DNA of 24,168 nucleotides from the IMG/VR virus record IMGVR_UViG_3300032093_000823, positions 1-24,168 of that record; one strand, given 5' to 3'. The first letter of the stretch is position 1. Each line of letters starts with the position of its first letter. The position numbers and the translations under genes are program-made. The notes under the pieces were generated by a model that worked only from the letters and a program-made list of their open reading frames with translations, was not told the origin of the DNA and made no database searches. Origin of the DNA: a virus. Shown in pieces: positions 4,811 to 14,283 of the stretch.

Positions 4811-5182
4811 TTATTTTATCTTCATAAGATCTAAAAATTGATCAAATGATAAGAGTCTTATTTTTTTCTTTTTCTTTCCACCAGGAATGTCTCCACTTCC
4901 GGTTGGCTGAGCGGCAAACGAATCAGCAGAGCCAGGATTTCCTGGAAACTCTACAGGACCCATTCCCTGTACATTCATATTAGGATTAAGAGTTACAGTT
5001 TCTTCGGCTACTTTATCAGGTAAACCTTCTTCTTTAGTTTCAGCGTAATCTCTTAAGTCTTTTTCTGGTAATTTAGACAATTCTTTTACCTCATCTGATG
5101 CTTCAGATGCAGAAAGCTCTCCTCTCTTATATAAAAGAGCGAGAGCAAAAAGTCTACGTTGTGCTTTACTCTGTGCGGGCAT
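4811..5182 (-). CDS. DUF3008-like small protein, 123 aa
   Basis: The N-terminal half matches, from memory, the DUF3008 pattern of short phage and bacterial proteins: MPAQSKAQRRLFALAL, then a helix with KRGEL, then LPEKDLRDYAETKEEGLPDKV at about residues 37-60. No biochemical role is known to me. The middle is Pro/Gly rich and disordered. The C-terminus has a run of five Lys followed by IRLLSFDQFLDLMKIK, which resembles the motif found at the N-termini of several neighbours (see findings), here at the opposite end. The start shares one base with the stop of the 448-aa gene (TAATG), indicating translational coupling with the nucleotidyltransferase. Confidence 0.65.
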   Translation of the reverse strand: MPAQSKAQRRLFALALLYKRGELSASEASDEVKELSKLPEKDLRDYAETKEEGLPDKVAEETVTLNPNMNVQGMGPVEFPGNPGSADSFAAQPTGSGDIPGGKKKKKIRLLSFDQFLDLMKIK

Positions 5183-5631
5183 TATTTAATATTATCTTTA
5201 AACCAACGATCTATCCAACCCTTAAGTTCTTTTTGTGCAGGTTTAATATCTCTAGGCTCAGTAGCAGGACCATTTTTCCATTGCTGCCAAATTTGTTCGA
5301 GTTCTCCTAATGCATTAGCCATACGGATAGAATCCATAACCTCAATATAGTCTTCATTAACAGACTCTTTCTTTTCATCATCTTTAGATAGTAATTCATA
5401 AACCTCGTTATCACCTGGTAATGAAATAAGACCTACTACATCCTTTCCCATTGCCTTCTGTTTGGCACCAATGGCATCAAACGTTGACAGAATAGCGTTA
5501 TAAGTTTCACCATTAACATCCATCTCTTTAAAGGTACCTTCTGATGTATCAACTTTAGGAGTTATTGGTTCTGTCATTTCCTCATCTTTTTCTCTTACAA
5601 GAAATTCATTAATTGATTTTAAGTTTTTCAT
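5182..5631 (-). other. Possible nested in-frame gene or fused module, 149 aa
   Basis: Met300 of the 448-aa protein lies in AACAAATG, the same context as several annotated starts (20712, 12052 and 10804 all have CAAATG). The following residues, MKNLKSINEFLVRE, nearly repeat the parent N-terminus MKNLKNIDTFLVE. Initiation here would yield a 149-aa protein with its own targeting motif and an acidic, helical body without recognised domains. Alternatively, two formerly separate genes have fused. The sequence alone does not decide between an internal start, proteolysis of a fusion and a relic. Confidence 0.4.
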
Positions 5632-6528
5632 TTGTTTACTTTCTTTTATTGGGTTTAATGTATCCTGTAGAGTTTTATAGAAATTATGAATACTCTTAGG
5701 TGTCATTTTCTTAAACGTGTTTTCATCATCTATTGTTAAAGCATTGCGAACTTTAGATGCTGAAATGTCATCATCGGTTCTACCTATTTCAAATCCAGTA
5801 AATTCAGGATCAACTCCAAGTTGCTCCCTGTAGTCTGGCTTATCAATCATTGCATCATATGCACGTTTTCTATCAGTACCATACCCCCACATAACAGGCT
5901 CATATGCAGGTCTTGCAGTTGCAAAGAGAGTATCGATTGCACCGTTAGGAACTACAAAAGCCGCCTCTAGGAACGGATATTGCTTAGTCATATCAGCAAA
6001 CATAGCCTGCTGTAATTCTTCACTAAATGGATTTTTTTCAGGATCAGGTTTACCACCTCTTACCAAGAATACCACAACAGGGTGGCCATTCTTTTTATAC
6101 ATTTGTTCAAATACTTTTACATGGCCTAACGTAAAAGGCTGAAAGCGACCAACAAAAATATTAACCTTCTTTTTACCTTGATCTTTATGAGGAACATTTA
6201 ATGCCTCAGTAATAGAAGTAACTTTAGTAGCCTTTCTAATTCTATTGCCAAATGGGGAAAGCGAGTATCTTTTAATCCCTTCCTGATCTTCACTAATATT
6301 GAATAAGTCAAGGTTTCTTTTTAGCCATCTTTTATTGGCATTAATCTCTGATAAGATTTTAACTAATTCTTCCTCTGTTAAATGACCATCCCCAATTGAA
6401 TCCAAAAGAACATTTCTTATCTTAGCTGAAGTAGAAACAAACTTAGCAGGATGATTCTCGGTGTATCTCCTTTTAACAGCAACTTTCTTTTCAACTAAAA
6501 AAGTATCAATATTTTTAAGATTTTTCAT
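5182..6528 (-). CDS. Nucleotidyltransferase with capsid-targeting-like N-terminus, 448 aa
   Basis: Residues 121-262 form a cytidylyltransferase/NMNAT-like Rossmann domain. GRFQPFTLGH at 127-136 is the (H/T)xGH nucleotide-binding signature, and ISASKVR at 255-261 is the ISxxxxR motif that contacts the triphosphate. The family moves a nucleotide onto a phosphorylated substrate (as in NAD, FAD or CDP-alcohol synthesis); the substrate here cannot be read from sequence. Residues 1-13 (MKNLKNIDTFLVE) resemble T4 capsid-targeting sequences. Residues 25-100 may form a small helical or winged-helix module. From Met300 to the end is a separate 149-residue region that opens with a second copy of the N-terminal motif (MKNLKSINEFLVRE). 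The gap to the 943-aa gene is 18 bases, and the stop overlaps the next start by one base. Confidence 0.8.
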   Translation of the reverse strand: MKNLKNIDTFLVEKKVAVKRRYTENHPAKFVSTSAKIRNVLLDSIGDGHLTEEELVKILSEINANKRWLKRNLDLFNISEDQEGIKRYSLSPFGNRIRKATKVTSITEALNVPHKDQGKKKVNIFVGRFQPFTLGHVKVFEQMYKKNGHPVVVFLVRGGKPDPEKNPFSEELQQAMFADMTKQYPFLEAAFVVPNGAIDTLFATARPAYEPVMWGYGTDRKRAYDAMIDKPDYREQLGVDPEFTGFEIGRTDDDISASKVRNALTIDDENTFKKMTPKSIHNFYKTLQDTLNPIKESKQMKNLKSINEFLVREKDEEMTEPITPKVDTSEGTFKEMDVNGETYNAILSTFDAIGAKQKAMGKDVVGLISLPGDNEVYELLSKDDEKKESVNEDYIEVMDSIRMANALGELEQIWQQWKNGPATEPRDIKPAQKELKGWIDRWFKDNIK

Positions 6529-6546
6529 CTAAGTGTCTTTTTTTAT

Positions 6547-9378
6547 TTATTTAAGAATTCTAATACCTATATTCGCATTAAAAGGATTAGGAATACTACC
6601 TTTTCTTTCAAACTTAAATTCTGCTGTTTTGAAAGGAACTGTCTTAAATCTAAATAGTCCACCTTTTACTAAAACATCCAGATAAAGCTGCTTAACGTCG
6701 GTTACCAATTGACCGTATTTAGTTAATTGCTTTTGAAACTTATTATTCAGCATTATTTCAATCTCAACCATAAGAGGGTAAAATATAAAGCCTATTCTAT
6801 TTTTATCAGATGCAGCCTTTTGCTTTACATATAAATCATATACCTTTTGTGCAGGGAGCTTAGATTGATCAACACCGGTCTTTGAATAAAATTCTGACAT
6901 TACTGTTTTGAATTCCTGTTCATCATTAGACAGATCATCCATATAAGTAATCAACATATCTTTGTATGCCGAATTTGGTTGTAAATTTGCTTTAGACAAA
7001 ATATACCAATACCCAGAATTACTGGTTGAACTTGGAATGTTAACACTGCATAAATTCATAACGTTATTGTAAATCATGCTATTATCAAGTTTTGGCGGGT
7101 TTACCCATTGCTTAACTACATTATTTAGAAAATCGATTTCAGGTTGAGTATCAAAATGAAGATGCCCAGAATTATACATAGAATACATCTTTTGTATTAT
7201 TGTATCACCACTTGGGGTACCACCGCTTCCTGCTTTAGAAGAAATGCTATAATCGTCAAAGAAAAAGTCTACTAACTTTTCATTAGATGCAGTAGGATAT
7301 CTTAATCCAGCCCCAGCATCCCTCAGTAGATTAAATAGCATAAAGCCACCTAAAATTTCACCATAGTCATTTTGGAAGTTATTAATTGAAATTGAATCTA
7401 TGCCATCAAAAAGAGAATCAGTTATATCATAGAATAAATACCCAGCTGATGCATTTGCATATGTTTCAAAATCAGAAAAAGAATTTGCATTTTTAGAATT
7501 TGTAATTAATTCTCTAGTTGATTCAATAATAAAATTCTTATAATTATCTGGGTATGATAATCTATTTACATAACTTTCTACTTTTGAAAATAAACTTTGT
7601 GCATCTTTATATTCGCTTGTAGGTAATCCCATTGCATCGGGTGTAAGATCTTTTTTACCAATCACTGCAGCTGTACCTGTGCTCTTTTCAATCTTTACCC
7701 GATTTGTTATGTAAAAGATATCCCCGTTTTTATAATTATCACCAAGATTATCTTTTATTGGATTAACGATTGTTATCGCATATGAATCATAGTCACTTGA
7801 AATTTTCCCACCTGCATTAGGAACATATGTACCAACCTTTATCTGTTCAATTGAATAGTCTGTTCTCTTTATTCCTAGTCCTTGTAATAAAAAGTTTTCA
7901 ATATTTTTTTCAGCGGTACCATCATTCATTCCAAAATCTGCTCTAAGTACTTCTCCACGTATTTTAGATTTAGGCTTAATCCAATTCGTGGACCCAGTAA
8001 ACCTTTCATATTTTTTAATCCATTCCTGCTGTCTTTTAGTTAAACCTGCAGCTTCTTCTAACTTATTTGAATATGGAATTTCAATTTTACCTAAATTAAT
8101 AAAGCCATTGTAATTCAATGTCTTTTCTTCAATAATTATATCCTCGGCAGTTTCATAAGACTCATTGGTCTTTTTAAGATTAAGATAATCACTAAATGTC
8201 TTAAACTTATCATCAACTGATTTGTTAATTGCATCTTCAATTTTTGTAACCAGTTCGTTAAAGTCTTCTACCACAGACGGTGTTAAAATATTACCTACCT
8301 TTTCAGGGTTTCTCTTTTTACGAAGAGATCCTAGCATAATCTTAAACAGGTCTTGCATAGTATCATTACCTTTAAGAATACTCTGCGTTGCTTGGCTAGG
8401 AATAAGATCAACATTTAATTTGAATTCATCACCTTTTGCAAATTCAGCTTTTTCTATTCCTAAGTCTTTAAGACCTTTGCCTCTCCTAGTTACATATTCA
8501 TTAAATATTGATGATATTAATTCTAGGTATCTTTCATCTGGTGTAGTACTCAATAGCTCACCACTCTTTAAACCTCTCTCCTCAATAAATGCAAGTATAT
8601 CAAGAAGAAGAATTTCATTAATATCGGCAGGCACCTTTTTAGGATCAATAGGTTCTTTATGCTTTAAGAGATTTGCCGTGTAAGGATCAATTAGCTTTGC
8701 AGAAATGGATTGTGTAGTACCTGGCTTATAAAACTTAAATATGATTGATTCAATTGGTTTAGTTAAATCATCCTGTAAGATTGTAGAACTTAGCTTTGGA
8801 TTAAGAATCTTAATTAGATATTCTGCAAATGAAGATGTTTTGAAAATTTCTAATTGGTCTTCAATTGGAGTACTAATAAAGTTTTTAATACTATCTTTTT
8901 GCTCGTCTGTTAAGTAACCTTTAAAGATAGGAAGTAAAGGAGTTACACCTAATGCATTTGACCAATCCTGAATAACTCTAGGATCTTCAATAATCTTAAT
9001 AAACTTGCCATTTTGATTCTTTACCTGAATATGGGTTAAGACCAGATTATTTTTAGGTAACTTATCATATTTAATTACACCAGGTTCATTATGAACAAAA
9101 TACTGAAAACAAAATCTCCAGTTCGCAGGTATAGAATCAATAAATGATAATGTAGTCTGCTTTATGTAGTTAATAGGATTTTCATAATAAACCATTAATG
9201 TTCTATCAACAAGGTTAATTGGCTTATCATTAGACTTAAAGAATTTTAGTGATGAACTAGACTTTTCAAACGAAAAAGCAGATCCTGATAACTTTTCAGT
9301 TACTACAAGATAGTCTTTAGCGAGATCATTAATAAAATCTTGGCCTAACTCTTTATAAATTCTAGCTAATTCTTTCAT
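6547..9378 (-). CDS. Large protein with N-terminal ligase-like nucleotidyltransferase domain, 943 aa
   Basis: The N-terminal 230 residues carry spaced motifs of the covalent nucleotidyltransferase (RNA/DNA ligase, capping enzyme) fold. EKLSG at 28-32 would be motif I with Lys29 as nucleotide acceptor, though Ser replaces the usual Asp/Asn of KxDG. LKFFKSND at 44-51 follows; FQYFVHNEPGVIKYD at 91-105 resembles motif IIIa; IESIIFKF at 209-216 is motif IV-like; AKLIDP at 227-232 is motif V-like with Lys228. Residues 250-943 are not recognised: helical and Lys/Glu-rich to about 460, then mixed alpha/beta, with no membrane segment. The start context is A-rich without SD. A TATATAAA box lies 22 bases upstream of the ATG, and the gene heads a unit after a terminator-like hairpin. 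The ligase-like call is moderate because motif I is non-canonical; activity could be lost. Confidence 0.6.
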   Translation of the reverse strand: MKELARIYKELGQDFINDLAKDYLVVTEKLSGSAFSFEKSSSSLKFFKSNDKPINLVDRTLMVYYENPINYIKQTTLSFIDSIPANWRFCFQYFVHNEPGVIKYDKLPKNNLVLTHIQVKNQNGKFIKIIEDPRVIQDWSNALGVTPLLPIFKGYLTDEQKDSIKNFISTPIEDQLEIFKTSSFAEYLIKILNPKLSSTILQDDLTKPIESIIFKFYKPGTTQSISAKLIDPYTANLLKHKEPIDPKKVPADINEILLLDILAFIEERGLKSGELLSTTPDERYLELISSIFNEYVTRRGKGLKDLGIEKAEFAKGDEFKLNVDLIPSQATQSILKGNDTMQDLFKIMLGSLRKKRNPEKVGNILTPSVVEDFNELVTKIEDAINKSVDDKFKTFSDYLNLKKTNESYETAEDIIIEEKTLNYNGFINLGKIEIPYSNKLEEAAGLTKRQQEWIKKYERFTGSTNWIKPKSKIRGEVLRADFGMNDGTAEKNIENFLLQGLGIKRTDYSIEQIKVGTYVPNAGGKISSDYDSYAITIVNPIKDNLGDNYKNGDIFYITNRVKIEKSTGTAAVIGKKDLTPDAMGLPTSEYKDAQSLFSKVESYVNRLSYPDNYKNFIIESTRELITNSKNANSFSDFETYANASAGYLFYDITDSLFDGIDSISINNFQNDYGEILGGFMLFNLLRDAGAGLRYPTASNEKLVDFFFDDYSISSKAGSGGTPSGDTIIQKMYSMYNSGHLHFDTQPEIDFLNNVVKQWVNPPKLDNSMIYNNVMNLCSVNIPSSTSNSGYWYILSKANLQPNSAYKDMLITYMDDLSNDEQEFKTVMSEFYSKTGVDQSKLPAQKVYDLYVKQKAASDKNRIGFIFYPLMVEIEIMLNNKFQKQLTKYGQLVTDVKQLYLDVLVKGGLFRFKTVPFKTAEFKFERKGSIPNPFNANIGIRILK

Positions 9379-9400
9379 TTAATTTATTTTTGTATTACCT

Positions 9401-9408
9401 TTTATATA
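9401..9408 (-). promoter_or_regulatory. TATATAAA promoter-like box before the 943-aa gene
   Basis: The minus strand reads GAATATATAAAAGG, 22 bases upstream of the ATG at 9378, inside the 154-base gap that also holds two hairpins. Related boxes occur before the 412-aa gene and the gp32-like gene. There is no convincing -35 element, as in T4 late promoters. Confidence 0.4.
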
Positions 9409-9435
9409 TTCGGTAGAAATTACTACAAACAACAA

Positions 9436-9464
9436 GAGTGAGACGATAGCTCACCCATTATCGT
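9436..9464 (-). other. Two mutually exclusive RNA hairpins in intergenic gap
   Basis: On the minus strand, ACGATA (9459-9464) can pair with TATCGT (9443-9448), while GGGTGAG (9450-9456) can pair with CTCACTC (9436-9442, one G-U). The arms interleave with no base between the third and fourth arms, so both stems cannot form together. The second hairpin is followed by TTGTTGTTTG and could act as a weak terminator. A switch or attenuator is possible but only inferred. Confidence 0.35.
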
Positions 9465-9483
9465 TATTGAATTTATTGAAAAC

Positions 9484-9511
9484 AGTTACCTATTAACTAA
9501 AATAGATAACT
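9484..9511 (-). terminator. Terminator-like hairpin after the 423-aa gene
   Basis: On the minus strand AGTTATCTATT (9501-9511), a 6-base loop TTAGTT, and AATAGGTAACT (9484-9494) form an 11-pair stem with one G-U pair. The stem begins 21 bases past the TAA of the 423-aa gene and is followed by GTTTTCAATAAA. The stem is AT-rich and the U run short (four), so termination may be partial. It is the longest perfect-type inverted repeat I found in a gene gap. Confidence 0.6.
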
Positions 9512-9532
9512 CACTGGATGTAAGATCTGGTA

Positions 9533-10804
9533 TTATCTACCGTACTTAATTATTCCAAGTAATTGGTTAAGTGCAGCAAAGGTTCCGGTTAACTTGTAAA
9601 GTTTTCCGTTATATCTGAAAACAATTCCTTCCGTTGGAAAAATTGAATTTATTCCTCCAATTCTGTCAAGTCTAGCCAACTCATCTTCAACCTTTCTGAT
9701 TTGATCAGCCCCACCAGTTTTTCTAATCTTATCGGCCTCGGCTTGCAAATATGCGCGAAGTCTGGCAGTTTCGCCGGTTGGATCTGCTGCTAAGAAATTG
9801 CTGGCATTACTTAATATAACCGAACCTAGCTCAAGGAATAGATCTTCAAACGGTCTAATATTTTCTTTGTACTTTTTCTTTACGTCTTCCTTATCAAATT
9901 TCTTAATCTTGGCAGATTCATCAGGACTTAAAACCTTATCAAGAGATCTCATATTTAATGTATTCTTATCATCATACGCCCATCTTCTTAAAAGACCTTC
10001 CTTAACGTCTTGTGGAGCATTTGGAAATTCCTTATCAATAAGTTCTCTCCACCACATTTCATGATATCTTGATACCTCATCACCGTCATTAAGACCGTAT
10101 CTCTTTTGAAGTTCAATTACTTTATTAATAAACTTTTGCTTGTTTTGGCTAAAGTCCATATCCTGTTGTAATTGAATTATTCTAGGTGGAATAATCTTAA
10201 AGGTCTTTCCTAAATCTGCTTGTACTTTAGATAGGATTGCAGGAATTTCTTTAGCAGGGCGAGCATCAGTACCTATTACATTACCATTACCATCTGTTTT
10301 AGTTATATTATGAAATTGGATAACATCAGTATCATAATTAATAACATTAGGATTTCTTGAATAGATAAGTTCCATATTCATAAAGTTCTTACCGTTATCA
10401 AATGTATCTTGTTGAACTTTAGGAGGTAATTTAATTAAAAGATCTGCAAGGTCTTGTGCGGCATACTGAAAAGTATCTCTAACTGTTGCGCTTGGATGAT
10501 CCTGGAACTTTTGCTTAAAATCAGAAAGAGACATTGGAGAAATGCTTTCTCCTTTATTTCTTGCAAATTTTACCTGACCGTCCTGAATAGTAGCCCATAC
10601 GTTTTGGCCATCGGTCTTTTCAGTAGGATCTTCTTCAAAGTTTAATTCTCCGCGAAGACCAGCATCAATAATACTTTTAAAGTCACCAAAGGTTAATCCT
10701 TTATCGTCAAAAGGATGATTCATGTGGCCAGCAGCGCCACCTTCTAAAAGTAATGGCTGGCTTTTATCGGCCAGCCATTGTTCAAATAGTTTAATATATT
10801 TCAT
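9533..10804 (-). CDS. Polynucleotide ligase/capping-type nucleotidyltransferase, 423 aa
   Basis: All diagnostic motifs of the covalent nucleotidyltransferase superfamily appear in order. KTDG at 63-66 is motif I (Lys63 as AMP/GMP acceptor), FARNKGE at 80-86 follows, MNMELIYSRNP at 142-152 is motif IIIa-like with Glu145, EGIVFR at 392-397 is motif IV, and YKLTG at 403-407 is motif V with Lys404. About 180 residues (210-385), largely helical, separate motifs III and IV, an unusually long insertion. The likely reaction is ATP-dependent nucleic-acid ligation; RNA versus DNA cannot be told. The N-terminus MKYIKLFEQWLAD followed by LLLE-GGAAGH (cut after Glu21) matches the T4 prohead protease pattern (I/L)xE before a small residue, and the conserved fold appears to begin right after it. 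The start lies 9 bases after the stop of the 412-aa gene. Confidence 0.75.
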   Translation of the reverse strand: MKYIKLFEQWLADKSQPLLLEGGAAGHMNHPFDDKGLTFGDFKSIIDAGLRGELNFEEDPTEKTDGQNVWATIQDGQVKFARNKGESISPMSLSDFKQKFQDHPSATVRDTFQYAAQDLADLLIKLPPKVQQDTFDNGKNFMNMELIYSRNPNVINYDTDVIQFHNITKTDGNGNVIGTDARPAKEIPAILSKVQADLGKTFKIIPPRIIQLQQDMDFSQNKQKFINKVIELQKRYGLNDGDEVSRYHEMWWRELIDKEFPNAPQDVKEGLLRRWAYDDKNTLNMRSLDKVLSPDESAKIKKFDKEDVKKKYKENIRPFEDLFLELGSVILSNASNFLAADPTGETARLRAYLQAEADKIRKTGGADQIRKVEDELARLDRIGGINSIFPTEGIVFRYNGKLYKLTGTFAALNQLLGIIKYGR

Positions 10805-10813
10805 TTGTAGAAA

Positions 10814-12052
10814 TTACTTTCCCATAGTAGCTTGTAAAGCTCCAACCATTGCGCCGTAGTCACCTTTATACTTAGAGGTTAAACCATCAATAACTTCTTT
10901 GGCTTTTGCTTCATCAAACTTATCACCATGAGCAGACTTTAATAATTCAGTTGCATATTCTGCAAACTCGGTGTCAGACTTAATTTCCTTTTCGGAAATC
11001 TTGCCTTCTTTTACAACAACAGTACCTTGTACAGCAGGTTCATCCTTTGCAGTAGCAGGTTCTTCAGTAACCTTTTGATCTTTAGTTACTAATTCTTCGC
11101 CTTCTTTTTCATCCTTTTCTTCAGGTTCTCCTAACTTTACAATTTCGTCAGAAACGGCTGCAGCTGTTTTAGGACCATCACCCTTTGCGATAGGAAGAGC
11201 AATTCCATTTTGATCAGGAGTTTCTTCCTTTAATTCTGGGCCGTTATCGGCTTCTTCAGAAAGATATGATTCAGAAACAAATTGAGAGAATGATCTAATA
11301 CTTGAAACGGTACGAGATACCTTTTCTTCAATCTCTTCTTTCTTTTCTTCTTCTTCTTCTTCATTAGCATAGGAATCAGCTACAGGAACTGCATTATCTT
11401 CGTCTTCTTCTTCGTCATCCTGATAACTAACATTCTTATTAACAGTAACCTCTTCTTCTTTTACGAAATCTTCAAAGGTCATTATTCTACGTTTAGCTAC
11501 TGGCTTCTCTTCGGCTTCTTCCTCTACCTCTTCACCAGACTCTTCATCATCACCTTCAGCAGGTACCTCAGCAGTAACCTCTTGATCTTTAGTTACAACT
11601 TCTTCGCCTTCTTTTTCTTCTTTTTCTTCAGGTTCTCCTAAATCAACGATACTATCTTCAATTTCTTTAGATACATCTTCAGTCTTTTCAGTTTCTTCCT
11701 TTTCTTCAGTCTCTTCTTCAGTCTCTTCAGCAACCTCAGTTGTTGTACTTCCTACTTCCTTATCTTCCTCTTTTTCACCGTCCTTATCTTCCAAGGATTT
11801 AGGCTCACCAAGATCTTTGATTTCATCTTCAATATCTTCGGCATCATCTTCACTAACATCCTGTTTAGGATTAAATTCTTTTAGTAAAGCTTCTAATTTA
11901 GAAAGAAGTGCTTTTTCTTTTTTGATTTCATCAATATTATTATAACCTAGCTTTTGAACTAATTCTGCTAAAGCTTCTGGGCTAAGGTTTGCTGACTCCA
12001 AAATAGATAAACTACCATTAGAGGCGGCCGAAAACTTTTTAATAGGCTTCAT
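10814..12052 (-). CDS. Highly acidic repeat protein, probable prohead core or internal protein, 412 aa
   Basis: Residues about 66-345 are dominated by Glu, Asp and Lys and are probably disordered. A module beginning LGEP recurs three times (about 80-100, 137-160 and 306-330), the last two reading LGEPEEKxEKEGEE plus VTKDQ. Motifs resembling capsid-targeting sequences occur at 190-200 (IMTFEDFVKEE) and 252-261 (IRSFSQFVSE), and SILE-SANL at 17-23 near the N-terminus fits a prohead-protease site. The C-terminal 60 residues (from about 352) form an ordinary helical domain. Length, acidity and repeated cleavage-like sites recall T4 core proteins such as gp67 and gp22, but no homology is claimed. 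It lies 9 bases before the ligase-like gene and has a TATATAAA box 25 bases upstream. The hypothetical status is certain; the core role is inferred. Confidence 0.6.
   Translation of the reverse strand: MKPIKKFSAASNGSLSILESANLSPEALAELVQKLGYNNIDEIKKEKALLSKLEALLKEFNPKQDVSEDDAEDIEDEIKDLGEPKSLEDKDGEKEEDKEVGSTTTEVAEETEEETEEKEETEKTEDVSKEIEDSIVDLGEPEEKEEKEGEEVVTKDQEVTAEVPAEGDDEESGEEVEEEAEEKPVAKRRIMTFEDFVKEEEVTVNKNVSYQDDEEEDEDNAVPVADSYANEEEEEEKKEEIEEKVSRTVSSIRSFSQFVSESYLSEEADNGPELKEETPDQNGIALPIAKGDGPKTAAAVSDEIVKLGEPEEKDEKEGEELVTKDQKVTEEPATAKDEPAVQGTVVVKEGKISEKEIKSDTEFAEYATELLKSAHGDKFDEAKAKEVIDGLTSKYKGDYGAMVGALQATMGK
11069..11134 (-). repeat. 66-base direct repeat, copy near 3' end of the acidic gene
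   Basis: This stretch and 11576-11641 are near-identical 66-base copies in the same frame of the 412-aa gene, encoding LGEPEEKxEKEGEE and the VTKDQ segment. The differences are scattered single bases, several of them silent, indicating an internal duplication kept under protein-level constraint. Confidence 0.8.
11576..11641 (-). repeat. 66-base direct repeat, copy near middle of the acidic gene
   Basis: This is the partner of the copy at 11069-11134, about 507 bases away. A third, more diverged protein-level copy (LGEPKSLEDKDGE) lies upstream at about residues 81-93. Confidence 0.8.
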
Positions 12053-13616: not shown

Positions 13617-14062
13617 TATTGTTCATCATCGAGTCTTATGCGATTACGGATTGCAAAAGCTAGGTTATCCAAGGTTTTAATACATTCTTGGTAATAATCC
13701 ACATGCGATTGCAACATGTCTATTTGTGTTCTTAATGAACCTAAATCTGCTTTAATAAATTGATGTTTTTCGCCGCTCGTTAATTTAACATCATAGTTTA
13801 AAGTATATTCACGATACTGTGCACGATAGTATCTTTCCCAGGTTGCATTTCTCTTATATATCATTGTCTTAAAATCAGTAACCTTATCTAAAAGAATTTG
13901 TCTATATGAAAGCATACTTACCTGACAATCAGAAAGTTCATTCATATTTTTAATTTTAAGAACTAGATCATTTATCTTGGTTTTCCATTCTGTTCTGTCG
14001 CTCGTTAGTCTTAATTCGAGTTCCTCGTTTGCCTGCTTTATTTGTGTGTCATCAAATGCCAT
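13616..14062 (-). CDS. uvsY: UvsY-like recombination mediator, 148 aa
   Basis: The product is all-helical and coiled-coil prone, of similar size to T4 UvsY (137 aa). UvsY loads the UvsX recombinase onto ssDNA coated by gp32. The C-terminal segment VDYYQECIKTLDNLAFAIRN (121-140) resembles the C-terminal helix of T4 UvsY, which carries a similar aromatic start and AI-x-x-R pattern (compared from memory). The middle has RYYRAQYREYTLNY, rich in Arg and Tyr and plausible for ssDNA contact. Context is the strongest support: it lies directly before the UvsW-like gene and in one cassette with the gp32-like and primase genes. Both ends overlap neighbours as TAATG. Sequence similarity is weak, so confidence is moderate to good. 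Confidence 0.7.
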   Translation of the reverse strand: MAFDDTQIKQANEELELRLTSDRTEWKTKINDLVLKIKNMNELSDCQVSMLSYRQILLDKVTDFKTMIYKRNATWERYYRAQYREYTLNYDVKLTSGEKHQFIKADLGSLRTQIDMLQSHVDYYQECIKTLDNLAFAIRNRIRLDDEQ

Positions 14063-14283
14063 TAGAATATTCCTTTATCGTTATTTGTATGTTTAACAAC
14101 CTTTATTTTAGGTTGAAATTTTTTCTTAGGTTCATTAACCTTGATGTCCTTTCTTTCATGAGAAAGTTTACTTTTAGTAAACGAAGTAAATAGCTTAATT
14201 CGTTTTTGACTATCTTCATAGTCCTCATAAAAATCTTCTATCTGCTCGTTCACAAACGATTCATATTTTTTTATCTCAATCAT
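14062..14283 (-). CDS. 73-aa protein with capsid-targeting-like N-terminus
   Basis: The protein is not a recognised family. It begins MIEIKKYESFVNE, resembling the T4 internal-protein targeting sequence with a Glu at the expected cleavage point. After that come an acidic patch (EDFYEDYEDS) and a strongly basic remainder (Lys-rich, KSKLSHERKD and PKKKFQPKIKVVKH). Cleavage would leave about 60 residues, comparable in size and basicity to mature T4 IPI. It overlaps the primase stop by four bases (ATGA) and the UvsY-like start by one base. Its place inside a replication operon is odd for a virion protein; a DNA-binding accessory role in replication is the alternative. Confidence 0.6.
   Translation of the reverse strand: MIEIKKYESFVNEQIEDFYEDYEDSQKRIKLFTSFTKSKLSHERKDIKVNEPKKKFQPKIKVVKHTNNDKGIF

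What the first reader, a model, noticed from the sequence alone, without database searches (positions are those of the whole stretch)
5182..10804. Three consecutive nucleotidyl-transfer enzymes: ligase-like, second ligase-like, and GRFQPFTLGH type
The 423-aa protein has a full ligase/capping motif set (KTDG, EGIVFR, YKLTG). The 943-aa protein has a divergent set (EKLSG, IESIIFKF, AKLIDP). The 448-aa protein has NMNAT/cytidylyltransferase motifs. Two of the three carry packaging-like tags. They may form one pathway, for example repair or modification of nucleic-acid ends on entry, or an NAD-linked step. I know of no described system with this composition.
Basis: partly seen in the sequence, partly recalled or inferred. 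Interest (0 to 1): 0.72.

Follow-up and report, generated by a model that had tools for sequence, protein, structure and literature searches.

The report
Virion-tagged RNA-ligase and NMNAT-like gene cluster
A marine T4-like phage family carries, side by side and often fused into one protein, an RNA-ligase-like enzyme, a worn-down second ligase and an NAD-synthase-like enzyme that look packaged inside the virus particle and shot into the host with the DNA; the pairing recurs in many unrelated phages and appears undescribed.

Summary
The three genes are real and exactly where described. AlphaFold models place the 423-aa protein and residues 1-243 of the 943-aa protein in the RNA-ligase fold (Z up to 9.4 and 9.2; for the latter, Foldseek E 3e-5 to T4 Rnl2). 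The 448-aa protein has an intact HIGH nucleotidyltransferase domain closest to archaeal-type NMNAT. The 423-aa family keeps EKxDG, R, E, EGxV and the first motif-V lysine in all 43 aligned sequences. The 943-aa ligase domain keeps the lysine in 47 of 48 but never a complete catalytic set: a probable pseudo-ligase. Association is very strong: in relatives pseudo-ligase and HIGH domain are one ORF directly after the ligase; in other lineages HIGH is fused to the ligase itself, sometimes with a P-loop kinase. Of 255 ligase ORFs, 196 have a HIGH motif in the same or a neighbouring ORF, 57 are truncated, 2 lack it. The ligase starts with a T4-like capsid-targeting tag; published proteomics found cyanophage homologues of the HIGH protein and of the next window gene in virions. 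Cyanophage DUF6267 looks like a counterpart of the ligase. Best reading: a head-packaged, ejected ligase plus NMNAT-like module. Chemistry and substrate are unproven.

The parts
9533..10804 (-). lig423: divergent KxDG nucleotidyltransferase of RNA-ligase fold, with a helical insertion between the motif-III and motif-IV regions
   Evidence: AlphaFold pLDDT 86; VIA Z 9.4 to Naegleria RNA ligase, all 50 listed entries ligases or capping enzymes; invariant catalytic motifs; no Pfam/PHROG/NCBIfam/PDB-sequence match
10763..10804 (-). N-terminal capsid-targeting-like tag MKYIKLFEQWLADK of lig423
   Evidence: pattern [FYW]xx[FW][ILV]x[ED] in the first 40 aa of 75 of 83 distinct standalone lig N-termini; same spacing as T4 IPII/IPIII MKTYQEFIAE
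10607..10621 (-). lig423 motif I EKTDG (K63)
   Evidence: K, D and G identical in 43 of 43
9584..9631 (-). lig423 motifs IV (EGIVF) and V (YKLTG; the usual second lysine is an invariant Thr)
8650..9378 (-). p943 residues 1-243: degenerate RNA-ligase-fold domain (pseudo-ligase)
   Evidence: Foldseek E 3.1e-5, prob 1.00 to T4 Rnl2; VIA Z 9.2; incomplete catalytic set in 48 of 48
6547..8076 (-). p943 residues 435-943: exchangeable C-terminal module of unknown function, plus stop codon
   Evidence: replaced by an unrelated longer C-terminal module in many close relatives and absent from the fused ORFs
5182..6528 (-). cyt448: protein with HIGH-superfamily (NMNAT/cytidylyltransferase) domain at about residues 118-290
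   Evidence: Pfam CTP_transf_like 3.8e-8; profile matches archaeal NMNAT MJ0541 6e-5 and NadM-type NMNAT/Nudix 9.4e-5
6121..6150 (-). GRFQPFTLGH catalytic motif of cyt448
   Evidence: GRFQPFTLGH and SA..VR columns invariant in the 9 aligned fused relatives
5590..5631 (-). second, internal tag-like copy MKNLKSINEFLVRE in cyt448
   Evidence: weaker variant of the tag pattern
4811..5182 (-). d123: DUF3008-type small protein with C-terminal tag-like SFDQFLDL
   Evidence: Pfam 9.9e-7; 41% over 58 aa to S-SCSM1 SSCSM1_93, annotated virion protein two genes after the NMNAT-like virion protein
10814..12052 (-). ac412: acidic protein with two internal tag-like motifs, upstream neighbour of lig423; membership uncertain
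   Evidence: two strict tag matches against 0.01 expected from shuffles; present upstream of lig in relatives

Best explanation
The cluster encodes a head-packaged, ejected ligase plus nucleotidyltransferase module. lig423 is a working KxDG ligase of RNA-ligase type: Lys63 is predicted to take AMP from ATP (or NAD+) and to seal 5'-phosphate/3'-OH ends, most likely in RNA such as tRNA cut by host nucleases. The first domain of p943 is a decayed form of that fold, kept as a scaffold that ties the HIGH domain to the ligase; in relatives it is literally fused to the HIGH domain. cyt448's HIGH domain is an active adenylyl- or cytidylyltransferase, most likely making NAD+ from NMN. The tags send the proteins into the prohead core so that they enter the host with the DNA. 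Shown by computation: folds, motif conservation, co-occurrence, fusion. Shown by others for homologues: virion location of the HIGH protein and of a DUF3008 protein. Inferred: ligase activity, substrate, NAD+ product, scaffold role, delivery in this phage.
For: Fold. Catalytic residues. HIGH domain. Association: p943N and HIGH in one ORF next to lig in 105 loci (the fourth scan selects for this, but the lig-only first scan alone gave 26 fused and 41 separate). HIGH motif in the same or a neighbouring ORF for 196 of 255 lig ORFs, 57 uninformative, 2 without; among 45 clusters at 80% identity 39 with, 5 uninformative, 1 without. Independent fusions in both orders. Kinase+HIGH+lig423 fused in marine contigs, against separate DUF6267, kinase and HIGH genes in HTVC008M (kinases 45% identical). 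Packaging: tag, rare as an N-terminal tag in a 181-kb relative (5 of 188 ORFs); NMNAT-like proteins in cyanophage virions (PMC9602691, PMC10665884); NAD/ADPr enzymes packaged in myoviruses (PMC9503650).
Against: No biochemical data exist for any member. Motif V has K-x-T where known ligases (own knowledge) have K-x-K. Foldseek E for lig423 alone is only 0.011. A nicotinamide phosphoribosyltransferase gene (NadV type) was found in only 3 of 10 relatives tested, so a complete NAD+ salvage route is not the rule. Several relatives carry another, canonical RNA ligase, so lig423 is not simply the genome's only repair ligase. Virion location of lig423 itself is untested. In S-SCSM1 the gene before the NMNAT-like gene is not DUF6267, so virion proteomics does not cover a ligase. 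Window upstream genes are replication/recombination genes, not clearly late genes.
Confidence: 0.45

Rival explanations
1. One coupled pathway: lig423 is NAD+-dependent and the HIGH domain turns the NMN it releases back into NAD+ (with a P-loop kinase making NMN from nicotinamide riboside in the polyprotein lineages), so that ligation runs on locally recycled NAD+.
For: The recurrent pairing and fusion in both orders suggest direct coupling rather than chance co-delivery. Kinase plus NMNAT resembles NadR (PMC9503650). The HIGH domain is closest to NMNAT.
Against: No LigA-type NAD+-binding domain Ia was recognised on lig423; the conserved HxxHPF stretch falls in the part that aligns with ATP-dependent RNA ligases. 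The kinase is AAA_33/Zeta-like and could as well be a polynucleotide kinase.
Confidence: 0.15
2. Unrelated counter-defence functions co-delivered in a polyvalent manner: the ligase repairs host-cut tRNA, the HIGH enzyme refills NAD+ depleted by NADase defence, and the fusions reflect packaging economy only.
For: Polyvalent proteins combine disparate activities and are injected (PMC5512222). The long multidomain ORFs (1400-1900 aa) and the exchangeable p943 C-terminal module fit.
Against: The pairing is too constant across lineages for interchangeable cargo.
Confidence: 0.25
3. DNA rather than RNA end repair: the ligase seals nicks or ends of the incoming genome, or works with recombination (uvsW, uvsY and gp32 lie just upstream).
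For: Gene neighbours are recombination and replication genes. In other lineages the gene lies near terminase and portal genes.
Against: RNA ligases rank above DNA ligases in both fold comparisons; no OB or DNA-binding domain was recognised.
Confidence: 0.1
4. Both ligase-fold domains are non-catalytic in vivo and serve as nucleotide- or nucleic-acid-binding scaffold parts of the head core.
For: p943N is degenerate; lig423 has K-x-T in motif V; a ligase-fold subunit of the poxvirus polymerase holoenzyme appears among the p943N matches.
Against: Strict invariance of K63, D65, G66, R82, E145, E392 and K404 across 43 sequences argues for catalysis in lig423.
Confidence: 0.05

Closest known systems
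T4 RNA ligase 2 / Naegleria gruberi RNA ligase / T4 Rnl1 / fungal Trl1 ligase domain
   Same: Nucleotidyltransferase fold; KxDG, Arg, Glu, EGxV and motif-V lysine in order in lig423
   Different: About 12% identity, K-x-T instead of K-x-K in motif V, roughly 200 residues of mostly helical insertion before motif IV, no sequence-level match, HIGH-domain partner, capsid tag
Pfam DUF6267 (PF19782; T4-GC71) next to cytidyltransferase T4-GC190 in cyanophages and pelagiphage HTVC008M
   Same: HLEHxED start, KWDG, EGFV, VKLV motif order; sits directly before or a few genes from the HIGH NTase gene
   Different: No significant full-length profile match (hhalign reaches only motifs IV-V, P 0.006); no pseudo-ligase gene recognised nearby
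NMNAT-like virion proteins of cyanophages S-SCSM1 (ORF91) and S-CREM2 (ORF154)
   Same: HIGH domain homologous to cyt448's (S-SCSM1 25% over 214 aa, E 2e-8); N-terminal tag MKSFLQFLKE; DUF3008-type gene downstream; found in virions by mass spectrometry
   Different: The upstream S-SCSM1 virion protein is neither lig423 nor DUF6267 by profile
NadM / NadR NAD+ salvage enzymes of phages (PMC9503650)
   Same: HIGH-superfamily NMNAT domain fused to a second enzymatic domain; NadR has a P-loop kinase, as do the polyproteins
   Different: Fused to ligase-fold domains, not to Nudix or nicotinamide-riboside kinase of recognised type; NadV absent from most relatives tested
Polyvalent proteins (PMC5512222)
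   Same: Multidomain, apparently packaged and injected phage proteins with exchangeable modules
   Different: An RNA ligase plus HIGH NTase combination was not found in the passages read

Membership tests
KxDG RNA-ligase/nucleotidyltransferase superfamily (lig423) | nucleotidyltransferase fold | tested here: met
   all 50 best VIA entries are ligases or capping enzymes, Z 9.4 to 5.2
KxDG RNA-ligase/nucleotidyltransferase superfamily (lig423) | motifs I, Ia, III, IV with catalytic Lys, Asp-Gly, Arg, Glu, Glu | tested here: met
   invariant in 43 of 43
KxDG RNA-ligase/nucleotidyltransferase superfamily (lig423) | motif V with two lysines (KxK) | tested here: not met
   K404-L/F-T406 in 43 of 43; so called ligase-fold and ligase-like, not assigned to Rnl1, Rnl2 or another named family
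KxDG RNA-ligase/nucleotidyltransferase superfamily (lig423) | lysyl-AMP formation and end joining | not testable with these tools
   needs biochemistry
KxDG superfamily, active member (p943 residues 1-243) | nucleotidyltransferase fold | tested here: met
   Foldseek E 3.1e-5 to T4 Rnl2; VIA Z 9.2
KxDG superfamily, active member (p943 residues 1-243) | complete catalytic motif set | tested here: not met
   no sequence of 48 combines K, DG, motif-III Glu and motif-IV acid
HIGH-superfamily NMNAT (cyt448) | (H/T)xGH and ISxxxxR catalytic motifs | tested here: met
   TLGH 133-136 and ISASKVR 255-261; invariant in fused relatives
HIGH-superfamily NMNAT (cyt448) | score above the NMNAT equivalog cut-offs | tested here: not met
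   NCBIfam NMNAT models 33 bits or less against cut-offs of 112 to 449; substrate therefore open
DUF6267 | PF19782 match | tested here: not met
   no match of lig423; hhalign only over motifs IV-V
T4-type capsid-targeted (CTS) internal proteins | short N-terminal targeting sequence | tested here: met
   lig423; cyt448 only a weak variant
T4-type capsid-targeted (CTS) internal proteins | presence in the mature virion and ejection | not testable with these tools
   only homologues of the HIGH and DUF3008 proteins have virion MS support (PMC9602691, PMC10665884)
Polyvalent proteins | multidomain injected protein | tested here: inconclusive
   long fusions in relatives; injection not tested
NAD+-dependent DNA ligase (LigA) | domain Ia / DNA_ligase_aden | tested here: not met
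   no Pfam match; PF01653 found in 1 of 10 related genomes, at another place

The most novel reading that the evidence does not exclude
A previously undescribed, widespread phage module in which an RNA-ligase-fold enzyme and an NMNAT-type enzyme act on one substrate or cofactor chain, held together by a pseudo-ligase and carried into the cell inside the capsid; lig423 and cyanophage DUF6267 are two divergent or convergent versions of its ligase, with an optional P-loop kinase as third step.
Probability: 0.3. Interest if true: 0.85.

Novelty: new variant of a known kind. Interest (0 to 1): 0.64.

Why it matters
Hundreds of cultured cyanophages and many uncultured marine viruses carry a 'hypothetical protein' next to a 'cytidylyltransferase'. 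The ligase reading gives both genes, and Pfam DUF6267, a concrete testable activity. It links virion proteomics that found NMNAT-like proteins in cyanophage particles with RNA-ligase chemistry, and suggests that these phages deliver end-repair and NAD+ enzymes at the moment of entry, when host defence by tRNA cleavage or NAD+ depletion would act. A conserved pseudo-ligase fused to a HIGH enzyme is an unusual architecture.

Tried and rejected
Sequence searches of lig423 and p943 against Pfam, PHROGs, NCBIfam, PADLOC and PDB sequences gave nothing useful. A direct profile link between p943N and lig423 or DUF6267 was not found, so p943N is called a decayed form of the fold, not shown to be a paralogue of lig423. 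DUF6267 and the Yut3 protein gave no useful PDB sequence match. A viral-contig scan with the huge-phage fused protein returned only itself. NadV/NAD-salvage linkage was tested and is weak. The idea that the gene before the NMNAT-like gene in S-SCSM1 is the ligase was tested and rejected.
Full report
What is there. The window is a 24,168-base fragment of an uncultured virus record. Its minus strand carries genes typical of T4-like phages: gp32-like, UvsY-like, UvsW-like, primase-like, tail tube, RuvC-like and GroES-like proteins. The three reported genes follow one another at 10804-9533, 9378-6547 and 6528-5182, between an acidic protein (ac412) and a DUF3008-type protein (d123).

The 423-aa protein. 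No sequence library recognises it. A scan of viral contigs with this protein alone gave 570 related stretches, of which 80 were kept. Alignment of 43 diverse relatives shows K63, D65, G66, R82, E145, E392, G393, K404 and T406 in all. A model built only from window and viral-contig sequences has mean pLDDT 86 and pTM 0.83. Foldseek's best matches are a fungal tRNA ligase, T4 Rnl1 and archaeal RNA ligases, at weak E-values from 0.011. The second-look aligner gives Z 9.4 (rmsd 3.9, 187 residues) to Naegleria RNA ligase, and all 50 listed entries are ligases or capping enzymes, RNA ligases first. So the fold call is firm although each single score is moderate. The departure from the textbook is motif V: K-x-T in all sequences instead of K-x-K.

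The 943-aa protein. Its model is less certain overall (pLDDT 77, pTM 0.40), but residues 1-243 match T4 Rnl2 at Foldseek E 3.1e-5, probability 1.00, and reach Z 9.2 to the Candida glabrata tRNA ligase domain and to Rnl2. The catalytic set is incomplete everywhere: K29 in 47 of 48, the aspartate of KxDG in 4, the glycine in 20, the motif-III position D, Q or E, the motif-IV position mostly D or E. One relative with DG has Asn instead of Lys; others with K-x-DG have lost the motif-IV acid. I read it as a pseudo-ligase; altered activity is not excluded. Residues 435-943 are a separate module shared by some relatives and replaced by unrelated longer modules (about 590-740 residues) in others, and missing where p943N is fused to the HIGH domain.

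The 448-aa protein. Residues 118-290 form a HIGH-superfamily domain (Pfam CTP_transf_like 3.8e-8). A profile of the fused relatives finds archaeal NMNAT MJ0541 (6e-5) and the NadM-type NMNAT/Nudix protein (9.4e-5) as best solved structures. NCBIfam NMNAT scores are far below the cut-offs for naming it NMNAT, so the substrate is open.

Association. In loci found with the ligase alone, the order ligase - p943 - HIGH holds in 41 loci as separate ORFs; in 26 loci p943N and HIGH form one ORF of about 615 aa right after the ligase; the others end before that point (the count includes a few loci from other searches). The same order with the fusion occurs in a 462-kb phage genome, LR756500.1, where the ligase is only about 32% identical. 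In a second lineage the HIGH domain is fused to the ligase itself: Microcystis phage Mel-JY01 WWT39297 (639 aa), LR756508.1 (915 aa, with a ParB-like part), and marine contigs of 1400-1640 aa that begin with a tag and add a P-loop kinase. Rumen and marine contigs filed under bacterial or archaeal assemblies show the same, including the reversed order. Counting all 255 ligase ORFs: HIGH motif in the same ORF 47, in a neighbouring ORF 149, truncated 57, absent 2; at 80% clustering 39 of 45 clusters have it, 5 are uninformative, 1 lacks it. Caveat: scans 2 and 4 used queries that contain the HIGH domain, so the scan-1 numbers are the unbiased ones.

Wider theme. In cyanophages the 'cytidylyltransferase' (T4-GC190) directly follows T4-GC71, Pfam DUF6267, a family of unknown function with KWDG, EGFV and VKLV in the right order; a DUF6267 query matches 470 phage records. 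In pelagiphage HTVC008M the DUF6267 protein, a kinase 45% identical to the kinase part of the marine polyproteins, and a HIGH protein are near neighbours. In Stenotrophomonas phage Yut3 a protein with KMDG and EGVI precedes a HIGH protein. Whether DUF6267 and lig423 are homologous is not settled: the profile comparison aligns only motifs IV-V, P 0.006. No paper in the library mentions DUF6267.

Packaging. The ligase starts MKYIKLFEQWLAD; T4 IPII and IPIII start MKTYQEFIAE, and the same spacing is found in 75 of 83 distinct standalone ligase N-termini (related sequences, so this is conservation, not 75 independent events). In a 181-kb relative only 5 of 188 ORFs have the pattern near the N-terminus, against 1.4 expected. 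T4's tag directs proteins into the scaffold core, and internal proteins are injected (PMC3012670, PMC10229621). NMNAT-like or cytidylyltransferase proteins were detected in virions of cyanophages S-SCSM1 (PMC9602691) and S-CREM2 (PMC10665884); in S-SCSM1 the NMNAT-like gene and, two genes on, a DUF3008 protein 41% identical to d123 over 58 aa are both marked virion proteins. The window has HIGH protein then d123 in the same order.

How it most likely works. The proteins are drawn into the prohead by their tags and ejected with DNA. In the cell the ligase joins ends cut by host defence, and the HIGH enzyme makes a dinucleotide, most likely NAD+, with the pseudo-ligase holding the two together. 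Packaging of NAD/ADPr enzymes and phage RNA repair are both established themes (PMC9503650, PMC7824862, PMC5512222); their union here is inference. Main uncertainties: RNA or DNA, ATP or NAD+, and whether the two activities form one pathway. Against an NAD+ salvage pathway of the NadV type, that gene was found in only 3 of 10 relatives.

Verdict. It is a new variant of known kinds (RNA-ligase superfamily, HIGH NTases, packaged phage effectors), not a categorically new one.

Noticed in passing
L268:3184-3526 (181,663-base relative G001, about 43184-43526): A tmRNA gene with tag peptide DNAELAMAA and an adjacent tRNA-Ala, plus three more tRNAs elsewhere, in a close relative of the window phage.
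   Followed up: no
window 6547-8076 and the p943 C-termini of L003, L007, L013, L038, L041, L047: The C-terminal half of p943 is swapped for unrelated, longer modules in close relatives; one point of exchange between two conserved domains.
   Followed up: partly
window 9379-9532: The 154-base gap between lig423 and p943 folds better than shuffles as RNA (z -2.95), with two hairpins; possibly a terminator or promoter region.
   Followed up: partly
L130:4347-9275, L094:660-5186, L083:6483-9230: A conserved domain starting DDGPPTF/DDGPASW lies between the HIGH and ligase domains of the polyproteins; function unknown.
   Followed up: no
window 10814-12052: The acidic protein upstream of lig423 carries two internal tag-like motifs (FEDFVKE, FSQFVSE); possible scaffold or packaged protein.
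   Followed up: partly
L166-L168 (635-735 kb phages): Very large phages carry a standalone p943N pseudo-ligase (440-457 aa) with no lig423 in the stretch fetched.
   Followed up: partly
window 14062-14283: A 73-aa protein between the uvsY-like and primase-like genes starts MIEIKKYESFVNEQI, matching the capsid-tag pattern.
   Followed up: no
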